From Moraxella haemolytica (GTDB lineage: Bacteria; Pseudomonadota; Gammaproteobacteria; Pseudomonadales; Moraxellaceae): a stretch of 64,000 nt of DNA. The notes beneath the pieces were generated by a model that made no database searches, was not told the DNA's origin, and was given only the letters and a program-made list of their open reading frames with translations. Numbering within the stretch: the stretch's first letter is position 1; each line of letters begins with the position of its first letter. Of the stretch, positions 21,243 to 39,524 are shown piece after piece. The stretch is taken from positions 248,001-312,000 of the forward strand of contig NZ_CP089974.1 in assembly GCF_030177935.1 (NCBI RefSeq), given 5' to 3'. Made by a program: the position numbers and the translations under genes.

Positions 21243-22886
21243 TTAACTTATACTTGAGTCTTGAAAAATTACCGTTTTCAAAGAATCTTTAATTTGCTTT
21301 TCTAATATTTTACTTTGCTCAAACAAATCACCCAGAGTTTGTTCAAAATCTTGCATTTTGGCATTGAATTCACTCTCGCTAATATCCACATAGTCAATTT
21401 TAATATCAAAATATTGCCCCGCACTTAGACTGCAATTTTTACTGGCAATTTCATCATAACTCACCACCACACTAAAATCTTCTACTGCTTGTTTATTGGC
21501 AAAAGTTTCACAAATTTTATTTTCTTCATCAATGCTAAGTACCGTTTTTTGATTTTTGCCATCTTTGATTTTTTCGCCCAAATTGGACGCATCAATCAAA
21601 ATCACTTTATCTTTATTGCTTTTATCCAAAAATAAAATAGACACATTGGTGCCAGTGTTCGCAAAAATATTAGACGGCATAGACACTACGCCAGCTAGCA
21701 TTCTATTTTTTACCAAATATTCACGGATTTTTTTATCAATACCACTTTGGGCGGTAATAAAGCCAGTTGGCAATACAATCGCCGCTTTTCCTGTGTCTTT
21801 TAGGCTAGCGATAATATGCTGAATAAATAGCTGATAAATCTCCATTTTATTCTTGTTTTTTGTCTTAGTTTTCGGAATCCCTGCAAAAAACCGTTCTTTA
21901 TTTTCTTTGCTGTCTAGTTGCTCTCTAAAATCACTAAAATCCAATTTAAAGGGTGGATTAGACACAATGAAATCAAACTTTTTAAGCCCGCCATTTTCTT
22001 TATGCTGTGGATTTAATACAGTATTACCTTGAATGACATTGCCAATAGAATGGGGTAGATTATTTAGAATCAAATTTAAACGCAATAAATTGGACGATTT
22101 TTGGGAAATATCTTGGGTATAAATTGCACATTTATCCTCGCCAATGATATGCGCCACACTCATCAAAAGAGAACCAGAACCTGCGGACGGGTCATAGACA
22201 CTTTGACTTTTTAATTGCCCTCTTTGGTCGTATGGCACAAGGATTTGTGCCATAATTGACGCAACGGCATTTGGCGTATAATATTCGGCATATTTTCCGC
22301 CTGAATTACTGTTATAATCTTTGATAAGATATTCAAAAATATCGGCATAAAAATCATATTTTTGATTAAAAATATGTTCAAAACTAAATCCACTAATTTT
22401 ACCTATAATCGCACGGCAAAAATCATCTCGTTTGCTTGGGTCGGAAATATATTGGCTTAATCGCTCAAATAACACTACTTTTGCACCGCCATCGGTTTTT
22501 ACAGCGTATAATTCGGCATTCTTAGTCGCAATATCAAATAGCGTATCATCAAATAAATTGGCAAAGCCCGCTTCATTTTGGCGAACGGATAAATAAGAAA
22601 TGAGATGGTGCGGCTTTAAAATTGCTGTATTGGGTAATTGTAGATACAATAGCTCCTGTTCATCATCGCTCATTTGGGTATAATAAGCCTGCCAGTCGTT
22701 ACCATAGTTTGCCAATGTTTTATCAATGGCTTTAACATCATAAGCAAATTTATCATTAAGATATTTGTACAAAAATACTTGGGTAATGATTTTAAATTCA
22801 TTACCATCATTGCCCAATCCAAAATTAGCACAAATGGTTTTTAGACTGTCAATCATTTGATGGGTTTTTACTTTTAGGTCGGTCAT
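21243..22886 (-). CDS. hsdM: Type I restriction-modification DNA methyltransferase HsdM
   Basis: A 547-residue N6-adenine methyltransferase subunit. The N-terminal HsdM bundle (FLYKYLNDKFAYD) is followed by GGKYAEYYTP, the SAM motif DPSAGSGS (about 232-239) and the catalytic SNPPF (about 308-312). With HsdS it forms the modification enzyme and with HsdR the restriction complex. It is the last gene of the leftward locus and overlaps the abi gene by 4 bp (ATGA), so it is translationally coupled to abi rather than to hsdS. Type I modification genes usually neighbour hsdS directly, so having abi between them is unusual. Confidence 0.96.
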   Translation of the reverse strand: MTDLKVKTHQMIDSLKTICANFGLGNDGNEFKIITQVFLYKYLNDKFAYDVKAIDKTLANYGNDWQAYYTQMSDDEQELLYLQLPNTAILKPHHLISYLSVRQNEAGFANLFDDTLFDIATKNAELYAVKTDGGAKVVLFERLSQYISDPSKRDDFCRAIIGKISGFSFEHIFNQKYDFYADIFEYLIKDYNSNSGGKYAEYYTPNAVASIMAQILVPYDQRGQLKSQSVYDPSAGSGSLLMSVAHIIGEDKCAIYTQDISQKSSNLLRLNLILNNLPHSIGNVIQGNTVLNPQHKENGGLKKFDFIVSNPPFKLDFSDFREQLDSKENKERFFAGIPKTKTKNKNKMEIYQLFIQHIIASLKDTGKAAIVLPTGFITAQSGIDKKIREYLVKNRMLAGVVSMPSNIFANTGTNVSILFLDKSNKDKVILIDASNLGEKIKDGKNQKTVLSIDEENKICETFANKQAVEDFSVVVSYDEIASKNCSLSAGQYFDIKIDYVDISESEFNAKMQDFEQTLGDLFEQSKILEKQIKDSLKTVIFQDSSIS

Positions 22887-23803
22887 TTTATTTTCTCCAA
22901 AATTTTTAAACTATCTTTATCAATTCCCATTGATGTTAATTTGACATTCGGTAGCGTTGGAAAATCATTATCAATTAAATCAATAATCTTTTTATGCCAC
23001 TGATAATGCAAAGTATATTGAGAAACCAAATACCAAATTACGATAATTCTTGCAAACAGTCGTTCTTGCTGATGTTTTTGTAATTGAAATTGCTTAAAAT
23101 AATCAGCGTTTAACTGATTGATTGGATTGTATTTTCTATTCCAAATACGGCTATGATGAGCAGATTGATTTCTAATGATATTGATTTGTTCAAGCCAATT
23201 TTTTAAAACTCTTTGATTGTTAATATTAAATTGCCTAGCAATCAGTTTTTGATAACGCCCCTTTAACAAAGAATAATATTTTGACAGCATACCAAAATCC
23301 CAAGTTTCAATTACCACCCAAAAAGGCAAAGGTTTATTTGTTGTATTATGCCATATCACAAAATCATCACGACTTTTGTTGATTTTATCATTTAGTTTGT
23401 TTTTCCATTCTTGATAAGAAGTCATATATTTTGGGTCAATGTATTGGCTATCCAAATAAGCCAATGGGTCAAAACGAGCCATTTCGTGAGCAATAATAGA
23501 ACGCAAATTAATTTCTAGTCGCTCTATTGCGTCCAATAATAGAATGCGTAATTTTTTATCAAAAATATAAAGCTGATACACTTGATGAAAGTCGGTATTT
23601 GGCAAAAAATCATCACTCAATGTGTTATCTACATTTGGCTTACGGCAAATATGCCAAAATCCAGACAGGCGATAATAGCCAACTTGGGTGAGTTTTTTGA
23701 GAGTGTAATCGGTATCGGTCATTTGCATTTGACGCAGACGAAGCAAATCAACCAATTCGTGATATTCTTTAAAAGGTTTGGTTGGGGGGTTAGCTTGGGT
23801 CAT
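22883..23803 (-). CDS. Abi_2/AbiF-like abortive infection protein with HEPN motifs
   Basis: A 306-residue protein of the Abi_2 family (AbiD/AbiF-like). The N-terminal family signature is KLTQVGYYRLSGFW (37-50). Two Rx4H motifs of the HEPN RNase type are visible: R101-H106 (RSIIAH) and R211-H216 (RNQSAH). Family members are phage-triggered RNases that cause abortive infection; AbiF relatives have been proposed as ancestors of Cas13 and to work with a small RNA encoded beside them. Here the gene lies between hsdS and hsdM. The ATG is 3 nt after a T6 run and has no clear ribosome-binding site, and an RNA-like element sits immediately upstream. Overlap with hsdM is 4 bp. Activity is inferred. Confidence 0.88.
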   Translation of the reverse strand: MTQANPPTKPFKEYHELVDLLRLRQMQMTDTDYTLKKLTQVGYYRLSGFWHICRKPNVDNTLSDDFLPNTDFHQVYQLYIFDKKLRILLLDAIERLEINLRSIIAHEMARFDPLAYLDSQYIDPKYMTSYQEWKNKLNDKINKSRDDFVIWHNTTNKPLPFWVVIETWDFGMLSKYYSLLKGRYQKLIARQFNINNQRVLKNWLEQINIIRNQSAHHSRIWNRKYNPINQLNADYFKQFQLQKHQQERLFARIIVIWYLVSQYTLHYQWHKKIIDLIDNDFPTLPNVKLTSMGIDKDSLKILEKIK

Positions 23804-23806
23804 TAT

Positions 23807-23886
23807 AAAAAATCATAGACAAAACAAGGGGCTAGTATGATTGCCCACCCAAAAAAGAGTAAACAAACAGAGACTAACCCACGATT
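23807..23886 (-). ncRNA. Candidate AbiF-associated structured RNA
   Basis: An approximately 80-nt segment between hsdS and abi, starting where the promoter at 23893-23921 should initiate. Reading the minus strand: AATCGT (23886-23881), GGGTTAGT (23880-23873), a 30-nt T/G-rich stretch, AATCAT (23842-23837), ACTAGCCC (23836-23829), a 12-nt link, ATGATT (23816-23811) and T6 (23812-23807). GGGTTAGT pairs with ACTAGCCC (8 bp, one G-U). ATGATT can pair either with AATCAT, giving an H-type pseudoknot, or with the 5' AATCGT, giving nested stems. The T run makes the 3' end terminator-like. I recall an abiF RNA motif described upstream of such genes; the match could not be tested. Confidence 0.65.
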
Positions 23887-23892
23887 AAGATC

Positions 23893-23921
23893 ATTATAAC
23901 ACAAATTGTGTATCCGAGCAA
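23893..23921 (-). promoter_or_regulatory. Promoter of the candidate RNA and abi, with operator palindrome
   Basis: On the minus strand: TTGCTC (23916-23921), a 17-bp spacer and TATAAT (23893-23898), starting 4 nt after the hsdS stop. The spacer contains a perfect inverted repeat ACACAA-A-TTGTGT (23899-23911), placed as a repressor site would be. It uncouples abi and hsdM transcription from hsdR-hsdS. Confidence 0.75.
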
Positions 23922-23924
23922 CCA

Positions 23925-25175
23925 CTAAGCGTTGCCTTGTCCATCACCAATCCCCACCTGCCCATTCATCAGCATTGGTAATAAAAAATCTCGTAATTGG
24001 GTGAGTTGCTGGTTTTGAATAGAATTATTTTTAATTTTTTCAAAAAAATACTTTATCTTTAAATGGTATTCTTTTAATAAATCCAACTTAGGATATAAGA
24101 CAATAATACTCTCAAAATCCGCCTTATTCATATTTGCAAATGTATTGCCAGTTTTTGCCTTACCTTTTACAAAAAAGTCATTTAAAGCAAAATACAAAAA
24201 ATACATATTATAATCATTATTAAAAACAATTGAGTTAATTTGTTGATTTGTTTGAGACCTTTCTGTGCTAAAACCAATCAAACCAATTGTTGCAATACAA
24301 GATACACACAAACTATCTTTTGGAATATATTTTTTGCTTTGGCTATTAGCCCCTAATATTGATAATTTTTGTTCTACATTAACAATAAAAGCATTATTCC
24401 TAATATCGCCTATTGTAATAAACGGAATATCATTACCAAAATTATTTTCATTTTGAGTTGAGGGCGTTTTGCCTGTAATAATATTTTGTTCAATATCCCC
24501 CAATTTCTTAACCCCCCAACCCTTAGGAATTTCCCTTTTTAACACTTCATTATAAATCATCTCTCCGCCAGACGATTGATAGGGTTTGCCATTTTCATCA
24601 GGAAAATCAAACTGCACAAACCAATAATCATAAATCGTTTTTGCCATCTGCTCTAGTTGGACATTGATTTGATTGTTTAGGGCGATTTTTTGGTCTAATT
24701 GGGATAGAATTTTGGCAATAGATTGTTGGGTTTTTAGGTTTGGAATGGATAATTCCATCATATCAAAAGTTGATAAATTGATAGAACCAAAAACTGAACC
24801 TTGACTTTTAACTTGTAGATTTCTAACATAATTTTTTAAAATGTAATACAAAAAATCTTCGTTAATAATATCTTTTTTCGCTCTTAATCCAAAACAGGAT
24901 TGATTAAAAGCCATTGGTTTTCCAATTTGTGATAAAGCTCCAACTGTTCCTCTTGCTGAAATAATTGTATCACCTATATTCAATATCTTTGTACTACTTT
25001 CTTTTAATCCTTTTTCGGTAATTGTTTTTTCTGAATGATAAACAAATCTATCATCATTATTAAAATCCGCAACTGATAGCCAACCAATATTACCATTCCA
25101 ATATTCATTATTATTTGTTGCTGGTGTACCGCCACTAATAATATCAATAATATTACTTAATTTAACCACTTTCAT
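23925..25175 (-). CDS. hsdS: Type I restriction-modification specificity subunit HsdS
   Basis: A 416-residue specificity subunit with two target recognition domains separated by conserved coiled coils. The first domain begins near VVKLSNIIDIISGGTP and ends at QQSIAKILSQLDQKIALNNQIN (written in parts: SIAKILSQLDQKIALNN). The second begins at GWGVKKLGDIEQNIITGKTPST and ends with a shorter helix NQQLTQLRDFLLPMLMNGQV. It recognises a bipartite DNA target that cannot be predicted by eye. Its start overlaps the hsdR stop by one base (TAATG), so the two are coupled. The target recognition domains are AT-rich, typical of exchanged specificity modules. It is followed by the abi promoter. Confidence 0.95.
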   Translation of the reverse strand: MKVVKLSNIIDIISGGTPATNNNEYWNGNIGWLSVADFNNDDRFVYHSEKTITEKGLKESSTKILNIGDTIISARGTVGALSQIGKPMAFNQSCFGLRAKKDIINEDFLYYILKNYVRNLQVKSQGSVFGSINLSTFDMMELSIPNLKTQQSIAKILSQLDQKIALNNQINVQLEQMAKTIYDYWFVQFDFPDENGKPYQSSGGEMIYNEVLKREIPKGWGVKKLGDIEQNIITGKTPSTQNENNFGNDIPFITIGDIRNNAFIVNVEQKLSILGANSQSKKYIPKDSLCVSCIATIGLIGFSTERSQTNQQINSIVFNNDYNMYFLYFALNDFFVKGKAKTGNTFANMNKADFESIIVLYPKLDLLKEYHLKIKYFFEKIKNNSIQNQQLTQLRDFLLPMLMNGQVGIGDGQGNA

Positions 25176-28100
25176 TACAATTCCTCCAATCTATTCGCCA
25201 TATATTCTTTGACCAATAATCCATTGATTTGGTTAATAAGTGGTGCGGTAATGTTCAGTGATTTTTCTTTAAATTCCCCAATCAAAATCGCCCCTGATTG
25301 TTTGCTAAAATAAGCCTCATTATCCAGCATTTGCTCCAAATTTAATACTTTTTCGTCAAGCCCCTCTTTGGTATTTAATAACACTTCACGCAGGGCGAGT
25401 TTATCGGTGTTTAGCGTTGGCAATATATTTTGTTCGTTTAGGCGTTTTTCTATTCGCACATATTTTTTATCGCCATTGTATTTGGTACGGATTAGCTCAT
25501 TTTGGCGATTTAATTCTTTCATTTGTTTGTATAAATCATCAAGCAATGAAATGTTTTCGCTCATTTGTTCTTGCCCAACTTCGGATAGGTTTTTCTTGGC
25601 AAAAATGCGTTCTAGCTCCTCTTTTAGAGCGATAAATTTTGGGTCTTCTTGGTCAAAATTATCATTAAAAACGCCTTGTGTGCGAACAAAACTGTCTTTT
25701 AAATCTTCGGCAAGACGCAGTTCATTTTCGCCCACTTTCACAAAGCTAAAATACACATCTTCCAATGCCAAATTGAGTAGATTGCTATTATCGCCTTGTT
25801 CTAATTTTTCTTTTAGGTTTAATAAATCAATGCGATTAGCGGTCTCTTTATACAAATCATTTAATTTATCAAAATCCAGTAAAGACAATTTGTCATAATC
25901 GCCTTGAAAACGAATGATATTATAAAGCTGTCTGGATAATTCAAGGGATTTTTTGAGTGTGTGTAATGTGTCTTTATTGTCTATTTGATTGATTTGCTGA
26001 CTAAAAATCTCGGCATTGTCCGTATCATAATCCGCCAATGTATTTTTGATAAAATGAATGTCGGCGATAATTTCATCGTCATTTTTAAACATTTGTGAAT
26101 AATGGGTAAAGTCATCGCCAAGCTCACTTTGCAATTCATCAAAATAGGCTTTATTGGTTTTGTCAAATTCTTTACTAATATCAGCAAAATCTACAATATA
26201 GCCGTATTTATAGTCTTTATAAGTGCGATTAACCCGTGTAATGGCTTGTAATAAATTATGCTCTTTGATAATCCGCCCAAAATACAGTTTTTTTAGGCGT
26301 GGTGCGTCAAATCCTGTTAAAAGCATATTATAGACAAACAGAATGTCTATCTTACCTGCTTTATAGTCATCAACCCGATCTTTGCGAGTGGATTTATCGC
26401 CAATATCATGCAAGATTAACGCACAAGTATGTTTGCTTGCATATTTTTGATTAAATAACTCAAACATCATTTTGGCTTGTTCGCTACTATCGCAAATAAC
26501 CATTGCTCCAAGTGTGTCATCATTATTGAGTTGACGAAAACGCACAAAATCCTTAATAATATAATCCAACATTGGCTCTACAAATCGTCTGTGAGCATAG
26601 ACTTGTTTTTTATCAAAACTACCTTGTTCTATTTGCCACTGTTTTATGGCTTCTTGCATTTGCTCTTTAAATTGGCTTTCAATATTTTCACGAATGAGCC
26701 TCAGTGTATAACCATCTGCAATAGAATCATTATAATAATATTTATGAATATAATCGCCAAACAGTTTTTTGGACGATGAATTACCCAACAATGGCGTGCC
26801 TGTTAAGCCAATTTTTATGGCATTTTTATCTGACTGGGTCAAATTTGCCAAAAAAGACCCTGTGGGATTATAACTTCTATGCACTTCGTCCAAAAAATAA
26901 ATGCGTTGTATGTTTAGATTATAATCATTTTGACTGGTTGCTTTGGCATCATCGGCAAATTTTTGGATATTCACCACGGTAATTTCATTTTTGCCTTGAT
27001 GATTATGGCTAATATCGGATTTAATAGAACGAGTAAATTCATCTTTTGAATCTACTGTATGCACAAGTAGCCCACGAGCGGTAAATTCTTTTTTGGCTTG
27101 TTCTAATAAATCCAATCTATCCACAATAAAATAAAATTTTGGCACAATATGTTGTTTGGCATAATAATCGGTCAAATGACGCACATTATAAAAACTAAGT
27201 GCAGTTTTTCCACTGCCTTGTGTATGCCAAATAATACCGCTTTTTTTACCTTGTTCTAAGGCGTGTTTAATGGCAAAAGAGGCAAATACTTGCGGATAAC
27301 GCATAATGTGTTTTTGATAAGGGGTATTACCACTATGATTTTGCACATAAGCAATGCTATAGCGAAGCATGAATGCCAATCTCTCACGGCTTAATAACTG
27401 CGTACATAATTGATTGGTGGGCGTATCGGCTGATTGGTTGGCAATAAACTCTTTATTATGCAATAAAGCAGGTTCATTTACATCTTTTAAGATCGTGATT
27501 TTGTCATCAGTGGTCAGATCAGATAAAATTGAAGCGGTATTTTGAGCAAACGGTTTGTCTTCTTTAAAAAAATGAAGGGTGATTTGGGTATTGGGTGTGC
27601 TATAAAATGCTCCTGTTAATTGGCTTTCTGGCATATTATTGGAACATAAAATTAGTTGGGTAATATTCATAAATGATTTAAAGCGTTGGTTTTTGATACG
27701 CTCATTCATTCTGTGTTGTTCTGCCAAAATGCCTTGTTGATTATTTGGTTTTTTGACCTCAATAAATATTAGCGGCAAGCCGTTAATCAGTAGGGTAATA
27801 TCAGGGCGAAATTCATCATCGCCATTTTGATAAGTTAATTCGGTTACTACATTAAATTGATTATTATGAAAATTATCAAAATCTATGAGTTTTGGGCGGT
27901 CAATGCTAGATGATTGGTCAATTAAGCGTTCATAAAACACTTTGCCCAAATCATCATAATTTAACTCCAAATAAATATCCATCAATACTCTATCTATATC
28001 GCTATCTTGTAGATTGAGTGTTGGGTTTATTTTGTCAATGGATTGCTTGAAAATATCCGTAAAAATATTGCTCTTTTTATCCCAAACGGCATCTTTTAAA

Positions 28101-28183
28101 GACAGATATTGATAGCCGAGTCGCATTAAATGCAAAATGGCAGGGATTTTAACACGGGTGTTTTCATTAAAAATTTGGGACAT
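25175..28183 (-). CDS. hsdR: Type I restriction enzyme endonuclease/translocase HsdR
   Basis: A 1002-residue restriction subunit, of normal length. The N-terminal nuclease domain has the PD-ExK-like FRPDITLL...FIEVKKP (about 128-146). The SF2 motor follows with Walker A HTQGSGKTALSF (about 316-327) and the DEAD-like box LDEVHRSY. The helicase C-terminal half includes QAITRVNRTYKDYKYGYIVDF, and an HsdS/HsdM-binding helical tail ends the protein. It translocates and cuts unmodified DNA. It is the first gene of the leftward locus, with its own promoter at 28232-28260, and is intact, so the R-M system is probably functional. Confidence 0.96.
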   Translation of the reverse strand: MSQIFNENTRVKIPAILHLMRLGYQYLSLKDAVWDKKSNIFTDIFKQSIDKINPTLNLQDSDIDRVLMDIYLELNYDDLGKVFYERLIDQSSSIDRPKLIDFDNFHNNQFNVVTELTYQNGDDEFRPDITLLINGLPLIFIEVKKPNNQQGILAEQHRMNERIKNQRFKSFMNITQLILCSNNMPESQLTGAFYSTPNTQITLHFFKEDKPFAQNTASILSDLTTDDKITILKDVNEPALLHNKEFIANQSADTPTNQLCTQLLSRERLAFMLRYSIAYVQNHSGNTPYQKHIMRYPQVFASFAIKHALEQGKKSGIIWHTQGSGKTALSFYNVRHLTDYYAKQHIVPKFYFIVDRLDLLEQAKKEFTARGLLVHTVDSKDEFTRSIKSDISHNHQGKNEITVVNIQKFADDAKATSQNDYNLNIQRIYFLDEVHRSYNPTGSFLANLTQSDKNAIKIGLTGTPLLGNSSSKKLFGDYIHKYYYNDSIADGYTLRLIRENIESQFKEQMQEAIKQWQIEQGSFDKKQVYAHRRFVEPMLDYIIKDFVRFRQLNNDDTLGAMVICDSSEQAKMMFELFNQKYASKHTCALILHDIGDKSTRKDRVDDYKAGKIDILFVYNMLLTGFDAPRLKKLYFGRIIKEHNLLQAITRVNRTYKDYKYGYIVDFADISKEFDKTNKAYFDELQSELGDDFTHYSQMFKNDDEIIADIHFIKNTLADYDTDNAEIFSQQINQIDNKDTLHTLKKSLELSRQLYNIIRFQGDYDKLSLLDFDKLNDLYKETANRIDLLNLKEKLEQGDNSNLLNLALEDVYFSFVKVGENELRLAEDLKDSFVRTQGVFNDNFDQEDPKFIALKEELERIFAKKNLSEVGQEQMSENISLLDDLYKQMKELNRQNELIRTKYNGDKKYVRIEKRLNEQNILPTLNTDKLALREVLLNTKEGLDEKVLNLEQMLDNEAYFSKQSGAILIGEFKEKSLNITAPLINQINGLLVKEYMANRLEEL

Positions 28184-35210: not shown

Positions 35211-35468
35211 TTATAATTTTTCACAGATTTGTAAATTTGGCTGAACAAAGTCGTCCCAAGCGATGTATTTGGCTAAATGTTCTTTATAATAATTTTCTAC
35301 CTGACAAATAAGCGGGCGATCGTCGTAAATTAAACATAAATTGGTGCCATCATCAAAATGCCGACAAGCACCATCGCCACGATTCAAATAAGCGGTATGC
35401 TCACTTAAATTGACATGGCGACAGCATTTGCCACAGGAAGTGCATGGAAAAGGCGTAAGATTATCCAT
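35211..35468 (-). CDS. YkgJ-family cysteine cluster protein
   Basis: An 85-residue protein with eight cysteines (9, 12, 15, 16, 35, 45, 55, 82), including the family motif CTSCGKCC and ICQV. YkgJ-type proteins probably bind zinc or an Fe-S cluster; the function is not known. The start at 35468 (MDNLTPFPCTSCG) is chosen because the cysteine motif then begins the protein. The start overlaps the end of the decayed HNH-like membrane gene by 8 bp, and the stop directly abuts the stop of the convergent trpE. Confidence 0.88.
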   Translation of the reverse strand: MDNLTPFPCTSCGKCCRHVNLSEHTAYLNRGDGACRHFDDGTNLCLIYDDRPLICQVENYYKEHLAKYIAWDDFVQPNLQICEKL

Positions 35469-37126
35469 GTAATTTTTTAGCTTTGTTGTGTAGCCATGAC
35501 ATGGTACTGGCACTATCTCCCATTTTATAGGGTAGGTCTATGCCACGCCTATCTACTTCGGCTTGCAAGATTTGCCCTTTTTCAGTTTCATTGCTAGCGT
35601 AGCTAAGAGCATTGGATAGATCTTTTAGTTCCTGAGGGTTGAGATTGAACTCTATTTTAGCAAGATTGGCAACATAGATGTTTAGTTTGGCATTGATTTC
35701 TTTCATATGATCCAAAAAGGCATCGTATTTATTTTTGAAACCATTTAAATATTGCCACACTTTCTGCATGATGGGGCTGTGATAAATCAAGTAACGAATA
35801 CCCATCATTAAAAGACCTGTGAATAACGCACTAATAAAAGCGGCAACCTCTGTGCCAAAAGGGAAGGTTAAGATTGTTGCCAATTTCTGATGAAGCATAA
35901 CGCCTAGTATGGTAGCAATGCTTGCAAGGATAAGTTGGGTAATCTCTCTCCAAATCGCCAAATGTTAACCGTTGAGGGTTCAACACCAAAAGTTTGACGA
36001 TCTGTACTAAGTTGCTAAAAGATTCACGAATGAGCTTTCCCACCAGTTTTGTACTGGTTGAAAAAAATATTTAAAACAGTTTTGGTGATGCTATTTAGGA
36101 TGCCAGCAATAAAATTATCTTTAAAGGCATTCAATACATCTTGAAATCTTAATTTGACTCTGTTGAAAATACTCTTCAAGGCACTCTTTAATTTACCCCA
36201 AAGCATCTCAAGGCTGAAATCTGTTTAGCATTTCTTTAAAATATCTGGTATAGCTTTTCGTAATTCAAACCAAATTTCTGCCAGTATTAGTCCTATAGCC
36301 TGCCTTGCCCCCATGCGAAATCCTTGGCTAATGGCGGTTTGCCCTGCATTTTTAAGAAATTTGCTACTGGTATAATAAGCCTTATTAATATCTTTATTAT
36401 ATACACGGCGTGCTTGTTTATCAGCCTCCATTATTGCGTTTTTATCAACACTTTTTAGGGCTTTGAGATGTTCTTCATTCTTGCGTATTTCTTGTTTTAA
36501 ATCTAAGACCTCCTGACCATGAGCATCCGGTGGTAGGCTAGCCAATTTTTTTGTTATCTTGGATTTTTTTGCTCGCAATTCTTGATGGTTTTAGGGAAAG
36601 TTTCATTCAAATATTTTTCAATAGAATGTTGGCTTTTGGTAATATTAATTTTGTCATATGTGGACTGAAAATTGCTATTTTGATTGGCAAGATCTGGACC
36701 ATCTAGACCTGCCAAAACTCTGCCTGTGTCATCATGAACTTCTTTGGCAGATATAATATGGTCAAGATGACGCTTCTCACCTTGTTTCATTGTTGTATTG
36801 CGATAGGCATCATGCAATTCACCTGATTGATGTTTTTGCTTATCTTCTCTGCCTTTGTTGATATAATTTTTATGTGAATGATAAGCATGAGCATCATAAT
36901 CTCCCCGATTTTCATAGGTAGACCGAGCTTCATCAGTTGCCCATATGCCTTGACGGGCATTGTGAATGGTATCTACATCACCGCCTTTTTTATCTTCAAA
37001 TAGTAAAAAATCCAAGCCAAAAGTGGTTACAAGGCTATGAGTAACAGTCCTGTTCAGCTCGCCTGTCCAATCAAACTTTTCTGTTGTTATCATTGCTACC
37101 TGCCAAATTAAGGTGCCATCAGTCAT
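35461..37126 (-). pseudogene. Decayed HNH-like nuclease/membrane protein gene
   Basis: One long gene broken into at least five pieces. Piece 1 (from 37126, MTDGTLIWQVAM) holds an HNH-like segment RHLDHIISAKEVHDD...LANQNSN. It leaves frame near 36580-36586, where restoring one A gives KTIKELRAKKS. Piece 2 ends at an in-frame TAA (36225-36227) and continues in the same frame as LWGKLKSALKSIFNRVKLRF. Frameshifts follow near 36030-36045 (piece VGKLIRESFSNLVQIVKLL) and 35945-35960. The last piece (WREITQLILASIATILGVML) has two hydrophobic segments and ends at 35461. The intact protein would be roughly 550 residues: an HNH-like N-terminal domain, a helical middle and a membrane C-terminus. The family name is not known to me. 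It follows the Gly/Ala-rich gene by 47 bp. Confidence 0.8.
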
Positions 37127-37173
37127 TTTAAATGTATCCAAAATGACTGATGGATGATAGAGATTGAGTATTT

Positions 37174-38247
37174 TTATGATGCGTATTGCTTACTGGCTAT
37201 GACTGCTTCATCCATAACCTCTTGCATTTGCTCATCATTTAGGACATTGAACCCATCTTCTTGTTGTAATACAGGCGAGCCGTTTTCATTATAGATGATC
37301 TCGCCATCGCTTGTTTTGATTTTAAATATGGGTATGGTCATGACATCTGCTAGTATGCTAGCAAGGGTATAACCATTTTCAATTTCTCGATGAATAGCCT
37401 TGTCTTGTTCAATGATGTCAAGCCTGTCGGTTTTCACGAGTTCTGCTACGGCTTTTAAATCATCTAAGTAATATATAAACTCTCCATAAATGTCATCAAC
37501 ATTTTTGGTGATAACTTCGACATAGCTAGTTAAATTTTTTAAATAAGCACATGATTTATTTACTTGTTCGGTGTAGTCTCTTACTTCCTGTCTGATTGAC
37601 CTTGCTTTTTCTAAAGCGTCTTCGGCATGGGAGGCAAAAGCCCAACCTGTTATGGCAATCACAGGTGCTGCAACCACGCCACTTAGAATCATAGGGCCTC
37701 CAGTTATACCTAAGCCACCTGCTGCCAATGAACCACCACCAATGGCTGCCATGGTTGCATTGTAAGCTGCTACACCTGATAGAGCGGCTATCGGTGTGCC
37801 TGTAGAAGCTGCTGCCAATGCCATGGTGCTACCATAAACAGCGTAAGCTGCTGCACTACCACCTGCTACACCGCCAACAAGTTTGCCTGCATAAGCAATG
37901 GTGTTCATAGAGATGGCTTCAATTTTTTGTAATTCTAACTCTGGAAGATCAATAGTCAAGGGTTGCTTCTTATTGCTGTTGATTTTACCCAATAGCTCAT
38001 CTGCAATTTCTTGAAACTGATGTATGTCCTGCCCAATTTTCAAGTAAAGCTCACCTAGATCGTCCAATCTTTTTTTAGCACGCTTATCGGCTTTTTCTAG
38101 TTGGGCTTTCTTAGACTCATATTGATCTTTGGCACGCTCAAGAATCTCATCGGCGGTGTTTTTGTCTTGATAGCCGTCTTAGGCTTTTTTAGCACCATAA
38201 ATAGTACTTGCCGCAGCAAGACCGCCTAGAATAAGTGGTAATGGCAT
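37174..38247 (-). pseudogene. Gly/Ala-rich hydrophobic coiled-coil protein, broken by an in-frame stop
   Basis: An excellent ribosome-binding site (AAGGAGA) precedes ATG at 38247, which opens MPLPLILGGLAAASTIYGAKKA and then hits TAA at 38179-38181 (codon 23). The frame continues without interruption for 334 codons: a charged coiled coil (DEILERAKDQYESKKAQLEK), then a long Gly/Ala-rich hydrophobic stretch (about residues 110-205 of the reconstructed 357) with patterns such as GGVAGGSAAAYAV, and an acidic helical tail. It could be a membrane-active or pore-like protein. The stop may be a true nonsense mutation or an error. It follows the WYL regulator by 48 bp on the same strand. I do not recognise the family. 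Confidence 0.78.
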
Positions 38248-38295
38248 GGTTCGTCTCCTTAAAAAATGCTGATAATCAGCGGGTTTAAAATAAAT

Positions 38296-39171
38296 TTAAT
38301 TTAAATATGACCTTAATTCACTCTCAAGCCTATCTTGCCATTCTTTTGGCTCGATAATGGTCAAATGCGGTATCCAACATCGTATAATGGGCGATAATTC
38401 GTCATAATGCCAAACGGTGCTTTGTACGAGCCAGTTGCCACCGGCTTGCTCAGAGATGATGGATTGTTTGGGTAAAATTTGCCTTTGCTGAAAATAGGAT
38501 ATGACCTTTTGACTAACATTGATCAGAACGGTTATTTCTTGTTGCCCAAGCCAAATACTAGCATCGCTTCTAATAATTGCTTCAATGTTGCCATGTTTGA
38601 CAAAGTGGTCTGTGCTGATACTTAAACTGTGAATTTTGCCCAATCGATAGTTTTTTAATTTTTCATTTTCCATGCCTACTAAGTACCAATACCCTTCTTT
38701 AAAAATCAGTTTATAGGGATGGATACTGCGTTCTTTGTTGTCATAATGACAGTGGATGATTTGGCGATGGATAATGGCATGATCTAGCTGTTTCATCATT
38801 TCATTGAGCGTTTGACTGTTTTCATAGGAATGATGATGAATGTGATATGGGCTGTCTGAATTCTGCCGAATCAGTTCTCTTAAAAACCCAATATCCATAT
38901 TTGGTAGCAGGTTGTGAACACCGATGAGTTTTAAAAGCTCGCTCAATTCTTTGTGAGTTAAATTAAACCGTCGTGTATTATCCAGATAAACGACTCCTCG
39001 CTCACGCACAAGAGGTAGGTAACATTCCATGCGATTCAAATCACGGCGAATGGTCTTATCACAAACATCGTATTCTTTCGCTATCGCTTTAGTGCTTAGC
39101 TTCTCGTTGCTGTTTAGACGGATAAAAATATCGGCAAATCTGTCTGCCAATCGTTCGTGTTTATTGCTCAT
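38296..39171 (-). CDS. WYL-domain transcriptional regulator
   Basis: A 291-residue regulator. The N-terminal helix-turn-helix region (STKAIAKEYDVCDKTIRRDLNRME) resembles DeoR-type domains. The middle WYL domain (HRQIIHCHYDNKERSIHPYKLIFKEGYWYLVGM) has the ligand-binding pattern, here YWYLVG, followed by a WCX-like C-terminal part (about 200-291). Such proteins (BrxR/CapW type) commonly repress phage-defence operons until infection. The start at 39171 (MSNKHERLADRF) is preferred over 19 codons upstream because the longer version would run through the promoter. It heads the leftward unit containing the two broken genes, and its -35 overlaps a palindrome. Confidence 0.9.
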   Translation of the reverse strand: MSNKHERLADRFADIFIRLNSNEKLSTKAIAKEYDVCDKTIRRDLNRMECYLPLVRERGVVYLDNTRRFNLTHKELSELLKLIGVHNLLPNMDIGFLRELIRQNSDSPYHIHHHSYENSQTLNEMMKQLDHAIIHRQIIHCHYDNKERSIHPYKLIFKEGYWYLVGMENEKLKNYRLGKIHSLSISTDHFVKHGNIEAIIRSDASIWLGQQEITVLINVSQKVISYFQQRQILPKQSIISEQAGGNWLVQSTVWHYDELSPIIRCWIPHLTIIEPKEWQDRLESELRSYLN

Positions 39172-39201
39172 GTGTTTTATAATCGTTTGTTGCCTTGTTA
39201 A

Positions 39202-39264
39202 TATATAGCAAAACGCCAATAATTGCATGAAAAAATTGTACTCATTTTGAGTAAATCATGCAAT
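39202..39264. promoter_or_regulatory. Divergent promoter region with nested palindromic operator
   Basis: Two palindromes are nested: ATTGCATGA (39222-39230) with TCATGCAAT (39256-39264), and inside them TACTCA-TTT-TGAGTA (39239-39253). The leftward WYL promoter has an extended -10 TGCTATATA (39202-39210, minus) and its -35 position lies on the left outer arm. The right outer arm covers the start codon of the XRE gene. A dimeric repressor bound here would block both genes. Confidence 0.75.
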
Positions 39265-39524
39265 ATGATGTAAATAAGTCGGCTATGACTAAAAGTATTC
39301 ACACCGCTCAAATGATGAGTCTGCGAACATGGTTGTATCATGAACGCAAAGCTCAAAACCTATCCATGCGTACACTTGCTCAACGATTGGGTCGTCCTCA
39401 CTCCTTCGTCCAACGGGTAGAGAATGGCGATCGTCGTCTGGATATGGTTAAATTTGTTCAATATTGCCAAGCTCTCAATGTTGACCCTAGGGTAGGGCTT
39501 AAACTGATTCTTTGTATAGAATAA
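39258..39524 (+). CDS. XRE-family DNA-binding protein
   Basis: An 88-residue protein made mostly of one XRE/Cro-type helix-turn-helix: LRTWLYHERKAQNLSMRTLAQRLGRPHSFVQRVENGDRRLDMVKFVQYCQAL, with the recognition helix in RPHSFVQRVE. No other domain is present. Several ATGs (39258, 39285, 39312) could be the start; the first has GAGTAAA upstream but overlaps the operator. It is divergent from the WYL regulator, so it probably controls the same intergenic region and perhaps the broken two-gene unit. Confidence 0.85.
   Translation: MQYDVNKSAMTKSIHTAQMMSLRTWLYHERKAQNLSMRTLAQRLGRPHSFVQRVENGDRRLDMVKFVQYCQALNVDPRVGLKLILCIE

What the first reader, a model, noticed from the sequence alone, without database searches (positions are those of the whole stretch)
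35461..39524. WYL/XRE-controlled two-gene system, decayed here, of unknown function
Seen: a WYL regulator, then a Gly/Ala-rich hydrophobic coiled-coil protein (stop at codon 23) and an HNH-like protein with membrane C-terminus (about three frameshifts and a stop), tightly spaced on one strand, with a divergent XRE gene, next to a tRNA cluster. Known: WYL regulators often control phage-defence operons. Inference: this was a two-component effector system of a pore-like protein plus a nuclease-like membrane protein, and I cannot match it to a named defence system. Both effectors are broken while both regulators are intact, as if the effectors became costly.
Basis: partly seen in the sequence, partly recalled or inferred. 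Interest (0 to 1): 0.62.

Follow-up and report, generated by a model that had tools for sequence, protein, structure and literature searches.

The report
Decayed WYL-controlled membrane nuclease operon
This Moraxella locus is a recently broken copy of a widespread, mobile and still uncharacterised gene set (a WYL switch, a glycine-rich membrane coiled-coil protein, a membrane-linked HNH nuclease and a small cysteine-cluster protein) that most likely helps bacteria destroy phage or other foreign DNA; intact copies sit in about 7% of complete E. coli genomes, so its function can be tested easily.

Summary
On the minus strand lie an intact WYL regulator, gene A (Gly/Ala-rich coiled-coil, TAA at codon 23), gene B (HNH-like with helical membrane C-terminus, at least three frameshifts and a stop), and a divergent intact XRE gene. 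Among 80 B loci from many phyla, A is beside B in 79 and Y in 77. Proteobacteria use WYL-A-B-Y order; other phyla use B-Y-A or B-A-Y. The module is on plasmids and tRNA islands, in 425 of 5,426 complete E. coli genomes, and as an A-B pair in Aeromonas jumbo phages. HNH residues D-H...N...N are invariant in 50 of 50 sequences, and the 92-residue Gly/Ala block of A is nearly fixed in length. PADLOC lists relatives of A (PDC-M09A) and B (PDC-M40B) separately as unvalidated defence candidates; I found no description of the A-B-Y operon. Best reading: an inducible, membrane-anchored HNH nuclease system against incoming DNA. Defence is inferred from context (about 0.7); the mechanism is inference (about 0.4). 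Decay is recent, and A is broken independently in three Moraxella copies.

The parts
35211..35468 (-). Gene Y: intact CxxCxxCC (YkgJ-type, putative Zn/Fe-binding) protein, about 85 aa, third member of the module; start overlaps the 3' end of gene B
   Evidence: 46% identical to the Allochromatium plasmid copy, with cysteines and the RGDG...C..C.IY..RP..C core conserved; intact, 0 indels against M. caprae; Pfam CxxCxxCC on the orthologue L026
35461..37093 (-). Gene B (pseudogene): HNH-nuclease-like N-terminal half plus helical, membrane-like C-terminal half; at least three frameshifts and one in-frame stop
   Evidence: pieces; PADLOC PDC-M40B E=4e-14 and 2e-7; intact 544-aa orthologues in L012/L013; indels
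36554..37093 (-). HNH part of gene B; motif LDHIIS...N...N still readable in the remnant
   Evidence: translation; D111, H112, N141, N150 invariant in 50/50 relatives; Foldseek/VIA matches to Cas9 HNH
37174..38247 (-). Gene A (pseudogene by a TAA at codon 23): hydrophobic N-terminus, long helix, about 92-residue Gly/Ala block, long helix
   Evidence: PADLOC PDC-M09A E=1e-20; alignments A1/A5; AlphaFold2 model of the intact M. caprae copy
38296..39171 (-). WYL regulator (HTH-WYL-WCX), intact, likely start MSNKHERL; first gene of the operon
   Evidence: Pfam; orthologues of 291 aa in M. caprae and M. lacunata; WYL at 49 of 80 B loci
39239..39253 (.). TACTCATTTTGAGTA palindrome just upstream of the XRE gene, probable operator
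   Evidence: only match in the window, 0.08 expected; related box in four other Moraxella XRE-WYL intergenic regions
39258..39524 (+). XRE regulator, divergent, intact; found with this module only in Moraxella here
   Evidence: HTH_3; similar to solved XRE 3f6w and restriction-modification controller C.AhdI; 58-67% identical copies next to WYL in M. caprae, M. lacunata, G007 and G006

Best explanation
The locus is a recently inactivated copy of a mobile three-gene module, A-B-Y, under a WYL switch. In intact copies the WYL protein most likely represses or times the operon and responds to a ligand made during attack. B is a Cas9-type HNH DNase fused to a helical membrane-embedding domain. A is a membrane-associated coiled-coil protein whose conserved Gly/Ala (glycine-zipper-like) block packs in or inserts into the inner membrane and pairs with B to sense or gate DNA entry. 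Y is a small metal/Cys-cluster protein, translated with B, needed to mature or control A/B. Together they would cleave phage or other foreign DNA at the membrane. Shown: gene content, conservation, co-occurrence, mobility and decay. Inferred: defence function, membrane site, DNA target, and the roles of A, Y and WYL.
For: A in 79 and Y in 77 of 80 B loci across phyla with permuted order, B-Y usually overlapping by about 4 nt. HNH catalytic residues invariant in 50/50; Cas9 HNH fold matches; HNH_4 in a distant member at 21.8 bits, cut-off 22; weak endonuclease VII match for the phage copy. Helical, hydrophobic C-terminal half of B. Gly/Ala block of A about 50% G+A and nearly fixed at 92 residues. 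WYL at 49/80 loci, mostly first gene, same strand; WYL regulators of the BrxR family co-localise with defence systems (PMC9122601). Patchy distribution: B model in 6/369 and A in 11/369 Gammaproteobacteria. On plasmids, on E. coli tRNA islands often near type I restriction genes, on a spot also holding Zorya II. Flanking BrxL, GmrSD, HsdR, PD-(D/E)XK and dynamin genes. A-B pair in jumbo phages. PADLOC candidate families.
Against: No experiment or paper shows phage protection. The PADLOC PDC families are unvalidated. A random-gene control also gave many PADLOC matches (48 families against 77), so the flank enrichment is modest. Membrane topology was not measured and the key block of A has pLDDT below 50. 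Fold matches for B's HNH are weak as scores (E 1.5, prob 0.82). Phages lack Y, so Y may be dispensable.
Confidence: 0.5

Rival explanations
1. Abortive infection: A is an alpha-helical pore former (glycine-rich hairpin between two long helices, as in ClyA/XaxA-type proteins) that kills or depolarises the infected cell when B/Y sense infection; B's nuclease adds DNA damage.
For: Architecture of A (75-residue helix, Gly-rich hydrophobic block, 65-residue helix). Sub-threshold matches to xenorhabdolysin A and NheB profiles and ClyA (Z 6.3). Independent damage to A in three Moraxella copies would fit a toxic component.
Against: All pore-toxin matches are below cut-offs or in the noise for helical bundles. 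Intact A is retained widely.
Confidence: 0.25
2. Exclusion device of mobile elements: plasmids, islands and jumbo phages use A-B(-Y) to block competing phages or plasmids at the membrane (superinfection or entry exclusion) rather than to protect the host as such.
For: On conjugative plasmids, on integrase/tRNA islands, and as an A-B pair in jumbo phages LAh10 and D6, with the B relative also in D3 and D9.
Against: Many copies are plain chromosomal genes, e.g. beside trpE in Moraxella. Exclusion and host defence are not separable by sequence.
Confidence: 0.2
3. Stress-response or metal/redox system, or a maintenance (toxin-antitoxin-like) cassette, unrelated to phages; Y binds Fe or Zn and TerB neighbours hint at a Ter-like stress role.
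For: Y is a CxxCxxCC protein. TerB-like genes lie near 7 loci and an Hsp70 gene lies upstream in Vibrio. The island and plasmid spread fits maintenance modules too.
Against: An invariant HNH nuclease site is hard to explain in a metal-stress system. TerB is a minority neighbour. Gene order and WYL control resemble defence operons.
Confidence: 0.15

Closest known systems
PADLOC candidate PDC-M40 (component B)
   Same: Gene B matches the PDC-M40B profile over its HNH and following region (window 4e-14, intact copies 1e-30 to 1e-31)
   Different: PDC-M40B's best match here is a distant relative (L014, 1.5e-55) with a different small A-like partner; no Y was seen in the stretch held for it; PDC-M40 is an unvalidated candidate without a described mechanism
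PADLOC candidate PDC-M09 (component A)
   Same: Gene A matches PDC-M09A (1e-20 to 2e-24), sharing the STGT..LSGAAA.NA..GGG.LA.GG core
   Different: PDC-M09 pairs A with PDC-M09B (found here in L028 and L030); this module pairs A with an HNH protein and Y
Zorya type II (ZorA2-ZorB2-ZorE)
   Same: Membrane/coiled-coil component plus an HNH nuclease; found on the same kind of E. coli island spot
   Different: No MotA/MotB-type profile matched in A or B of this locus; the nuclease is fused to a membrane-like domain; Y and WYL added
Eleos / LeoABC (LeoBC)
   Same: A has a weak match to part of LeoBC (3.6e-8 for M. caprae A)
   Different: No dynamin GTPase in the module (dynamin LeoA only as an occasional neighbour)
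BrxR/CapW-type WYL regulators
   Same: HTH-WYL-WCX regulator upstream of, and co-directional with, the controlled genes (PMC9122601)
   Different: Family membership by sequence to BrxR was not demonstrated; a second XRE regulator is present in Moraxella

Membership tests
PDC-M09 (PADLOC candidate system) | component A profile match | tested here: met
   PDLC04407 E=1.1e-20 for the window remnant, 2.1e-24 for the intact M. caprae protein
PDC-M09 (PADLOC candidate system) | component B profile match in the neighbour | tested here: not met
   the neighbour matches PDC-M40B, not PDC-M09B; PDC-M09B found only in other Moraxella loci L028 and L030; profile comparison of B with L030 M09B inconclusive
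PDC-M40 (PADLOC candidate system) | component B profile match | tested here: met
   PDLC04630 E=4.4e-14 and 1.8e-7 for two pieces, 1e-30 to 1e-31 intact
PDC-M40 (PADLOC candidate system) | component A of that system | tested here: inconclusive
   no PDC-M40A match was reported for A; the definition of PDC-M40A was not available
HNH nuclease (Cas9/HNH_4 type) | catalytic D-H ... N ... N signature | tested here: met
   D111, H112, N141, N150 invariant in 50/50; present in the jumbo phage copy
HNH nuclease (Cas9/HNH_4 type) | beta-beta-alpha-metal fold | tested here: inconclusive
   Cas9 HNH matches at Foldseek prob 0.82, E 1.5 and VIA Z 4.3-5.0; Pfam HNH_4 21.8 bits against cut-off 22 in L014 only
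HNH nuclease (Cas9/HNH_4 type) | DNA cleavage activity | not testable with these tools
   needs a biochemical assay
Zorya | ZorA/ZorB MotA/MotB-like proteins | tested here: not met
   no MotA/TolQ/OmpA-type family among the Pfam or PADLOC matches of A or B; only the distant L030 A gave a weak ZorA2 match, E=0.005
Alpha-pore-forming toxins (ClyA/XaxA/HBL) | profile or fold match | tested here: inconclusive
   NCBIfam xenorhabdolysin A 16.7 bits against cut-off 125; ClyA Z 6.3 within helical-bundle noise
WYL regulators of defence operons | HTH + WYL + WCX and co-directional position upstream | tested here: met
   Pfam above cut-offs; W-A-B-Y order in 37 loci
WYL regulators of defence operons | repression relieved by a ligand | not testable with these tools
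   needs reporter and binding assays
CxxCxxCC (YkgJ) family | Pfam PF03692 match with conserved cysteines | tested here: met
   E=1.6e-7, 32.3 bits against cut-off 23 for the orthologue L026; window cysteines aligned
Anti-phage defence system | measured protection | not testable with these tools
   no experiment; no paper found in the held library

The most novel reading that the evidence does not exclude
A-B-Y is a new class of envelope-anchored immunity. An HNH nuclease built into the inner membrane is gated by a glycine-zipper coiled-coil protein and by a metal/redox CxxCxxCC protein, and cuts DNA as it enters the cell. A and Y are shared parts combined with exchangeable partners (HNH-membrane protein, PDC-M09B, or a 140-aa coiled protein), and jumbo phages have adopted the A-B core against competitors.
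Probability: 0.3. Interest if true: 0.78.

Novelty: new variant of a known kind. Interest (0 to 1): 0.58.

Why it matters
B relatives are annotated in public records as 'cobalamin adenosyltransferase' or 'ATPase' and A as 'chemotaxis protein', names that hide a conserved operon spread over several phyla, plasmids, about 7% of complete E. coli genomes and jumbo phages. If it is a defence system, one of the commoner unnamed modules in E. coli islands would be explained, two separate PADLOC candidates (PDC-M09A, PDC-M40B) would be joined into one logic, and an orphan protein family (YkgJ-type CxxCxxCC) would gain a role. The Moraxella copy adds a natural example of recent loss with the regulators and Y kept.

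Tried and rejected
Single-protein viral-contig scan with B: nothing; with the B alignment: 20 pattern matches, none a relative; with A: three weak matches. Foldseek of A against solved structures: no match below 0.001, only long coiled coils; VIA best Z 7.8, within helical-bundle noise. Profiles of A, B and Y against PDB sequences: nothing beyond coiled-coil noise for A. Idea that A's Gly-rich block is an ISG12/Ifi-6-16 domain: the Pfam model did not match it, dropped. Idea that flanks prove a defence island: a random-gene control also matches PADLOC models, so kept only as weak support. Papers on PDC-M09/PDC-M40 and on the gene combination: none in the held library; DefensePredictor's main text does not mention it (supplements not readable here). 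PDC-M09B as a homologue of B: probability 47%, inconclusive.

Full report
What is in the sequence. The window is part of a single-contig 2.12 Mb genome whose nearest relatives in the search include Moraxella caprae and M. lacunata (contigs of G018/G002 match the named records L069/L070 in length). On the minus strand, between trpE and a tRNA-Thr/Tyr/Gly/Thr cluster, lie WYL (38296-39171), A (38247-37174), B (37093-35461) and Y (35468-35211). XRE (39258-39524) diverges from WYL. WYL, XRE and Y are open. A has a TAA at codon 23. B is split by at least three frame changes and an in-frame stop. Compared with intact M. caprae B, differences still concentrate at third codon positions (108/42/195 at positions 1/2/3), so the gene was under selection until recently. 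Neighbouring housekeeping genes are intact, so general sequencing error is an unlikely cause.

Intact relatives define the unit. Searches of 57 relatives gave intact copies in G018 and G002 at the same trpE site. tblastn with B found 69 plasmid records; annotated contexts show WYL, A ('chemotaxis protein'), B ('ATPase' or 'cobalamin adenosyltransferase') and Y ('YkgJ family cysteine cluster protein') in a row. A scan of one genome per species gave 135 relatives, of which the best 80 were kept. HMM searches of their flanks found A in 79, Y in 77 and WYL in 49. Orders were W-A-B-Y 37, A-B-Y 21, W-B-Y-A 7, B-Y-A 5 and others, with B and Y often overlapping by 4 nt. Permutation of order in Firmicutes and other phyla, with the same three genes kept, argues strongly for a functional trio.

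What the proteins are. B: PADLOC PDC-M40B; residues D111, H112, N141 and N150 are invariant in 50/50 relatives; the one nuclease fold I recognise among its structural matches is the Cas9 HNH domain (8f43, prob 0.82 but E 1.5; Cas9 chains Z 4.3-5.0). A distant member reaches Pfam HNH_4 at 21.8 bits against a cut-off of 22. The C-terminal half is all helix with several hydrophobic stretches. A: PADLOC PDC-M09A; the AlphaFold2 model has a 75-residue helix, a Gly/Ala block with low confidence, and a 65-residue helix. The block is about 50% Gly+Ala, has 0-4 charged residues, and is exactly 92 residues in nearly all proteobacterial members. No significant fold match exists. Y: Pfam CxxCxxCC on the orthologue.

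Modularity. In other Moraxella loci the same XRE-WYL-A arrangement carries a different middle gene of about 140 aa before Y (G007 and G006, with a similar set in G015), or A pairs with PDC-M09B, with or without Y (L028, L030). So A is the common platform and the partner is exchangeable. The 140-aa variant also sits directly beside a type I restriction system on a Vitreoscilla plasmid and among toxin-antitoxin genes on an Acinetobacter plasmid. Aeromonas jumbo phages LAh10, D3, D6 and D9 hold a B relative at 31% identity over 98% of the query, and the two read in detail carry an A gene directly in front of it.

Mobility and neighbourhood. In E. coli the module, almost identical, is on the chromosome of 425 of 5,426 complete genomes (365 with at least 80% of the query). 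In the seven complete contexts read it lies near integrases and tRNA-Phe, selC or another tRNA gene, with type I restriction genes or their remnants close by in five. One truncated copy lies next to Zorya II. Immediate neighbours in other species include BrxL, GmrSD/SspE-like, HsdR, PD-(D/E)XK and LeoA-type dynamin genes. A control of 119 random genes also gave PADLOC matches (48 families against 77 for 131 flanking genes), so this association is suggestive only.

Regulation. WYL is HTH-WYL-WCX. XRE resembles restriction-modification controller proteins such as C.AhdI. A palindrome TACTCATTTTGAGTA lies 4 nt before the annotated XRE start and is the only such site in the window (0.08 expected). 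Related boxes occur in four other Moraxella intergenic regions. This looks like an XRE operator (inference).

Decay. A is damaged in three Moraxella copies by different events: a stop (window), loss of the Gly/Ala block (M. lacunata, 22 instead of 92 residues), and an insertion (G006). This fits a costly A, but the numbers are small and WYL, B and Y are also sometimes broken or missing elsewhere.

Verdict. The best-supported account is a WYL-controlled, mobile, membrane-anchored HNH nuclease system for defence against, or exclusion of, foreign DNA. Gene set, conservation and mobility are shown; function and mechanism are inferred. It overlaps two unvalidated PADLOC candidates (PMC12988326 describes PDCs as mostly unvalidated), but the A-B-Y operon with its exchangeable partner and phage-borne form was not found described in the library searched. 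The window copy itself is dead, which is why intact E. coli copies are the right test objects.

Noticed in passing
window 21243-28183: Intact type I restriction-modification operon (HsdM 21243-22886, HsdS 23925-25175, HsdR 25175-28183; HsdR PADLOC REase_I E=1e-45; HsdM and HsdS named from sequence) with an embedded Abi-like gene at 22883-23803 (named from its sequence only).
   Followed up: partly
window 39239-39253: TACTCATTTTGAGTA palindrome before the XRE gene; a variant box TTGTACyyATTTTrrGTAA recurs in four other Moraxella XRE-WYL intergenic regions.
   Followed up: partly
L032 5973-8569 and L033 5973-8569: Aeromonas jumbo phages carry the A-B pair without Y or WYL next to it, annotated 'chemotaxis protein' and 'cobalamin adenosyltransferase' in LAh10.
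   Followed up: partly
L026, L027, L029, L165, L166: A is also followed by an unnamed ~140-aa coiled protein instead of B; on a Vitreoscilla plasmid this pair adjoins a type I restriction operon.
   Followed up: partly
L141 6001-11517: E. coli island where the module is truncated in WYL and Zorya II (ZorE-ZorB2-ZorA2) lies 2 kb away; possible exchange of defence genes at one spot.
   Followed up: no
L015 832-7967: Vibrio plasmid: a divergent Hsp70 + WYL pair upstream, and a TerB-like gene inserted between WYL and A; TerB-like genes recur near 7 of 80 loci.
   Followed up: no
L023 10159-11028 (M. lacunata): A lacks the whole Gly/Ala hydrophobic block by an in-frame loss while B and Y are intact.
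   Followed up: partly
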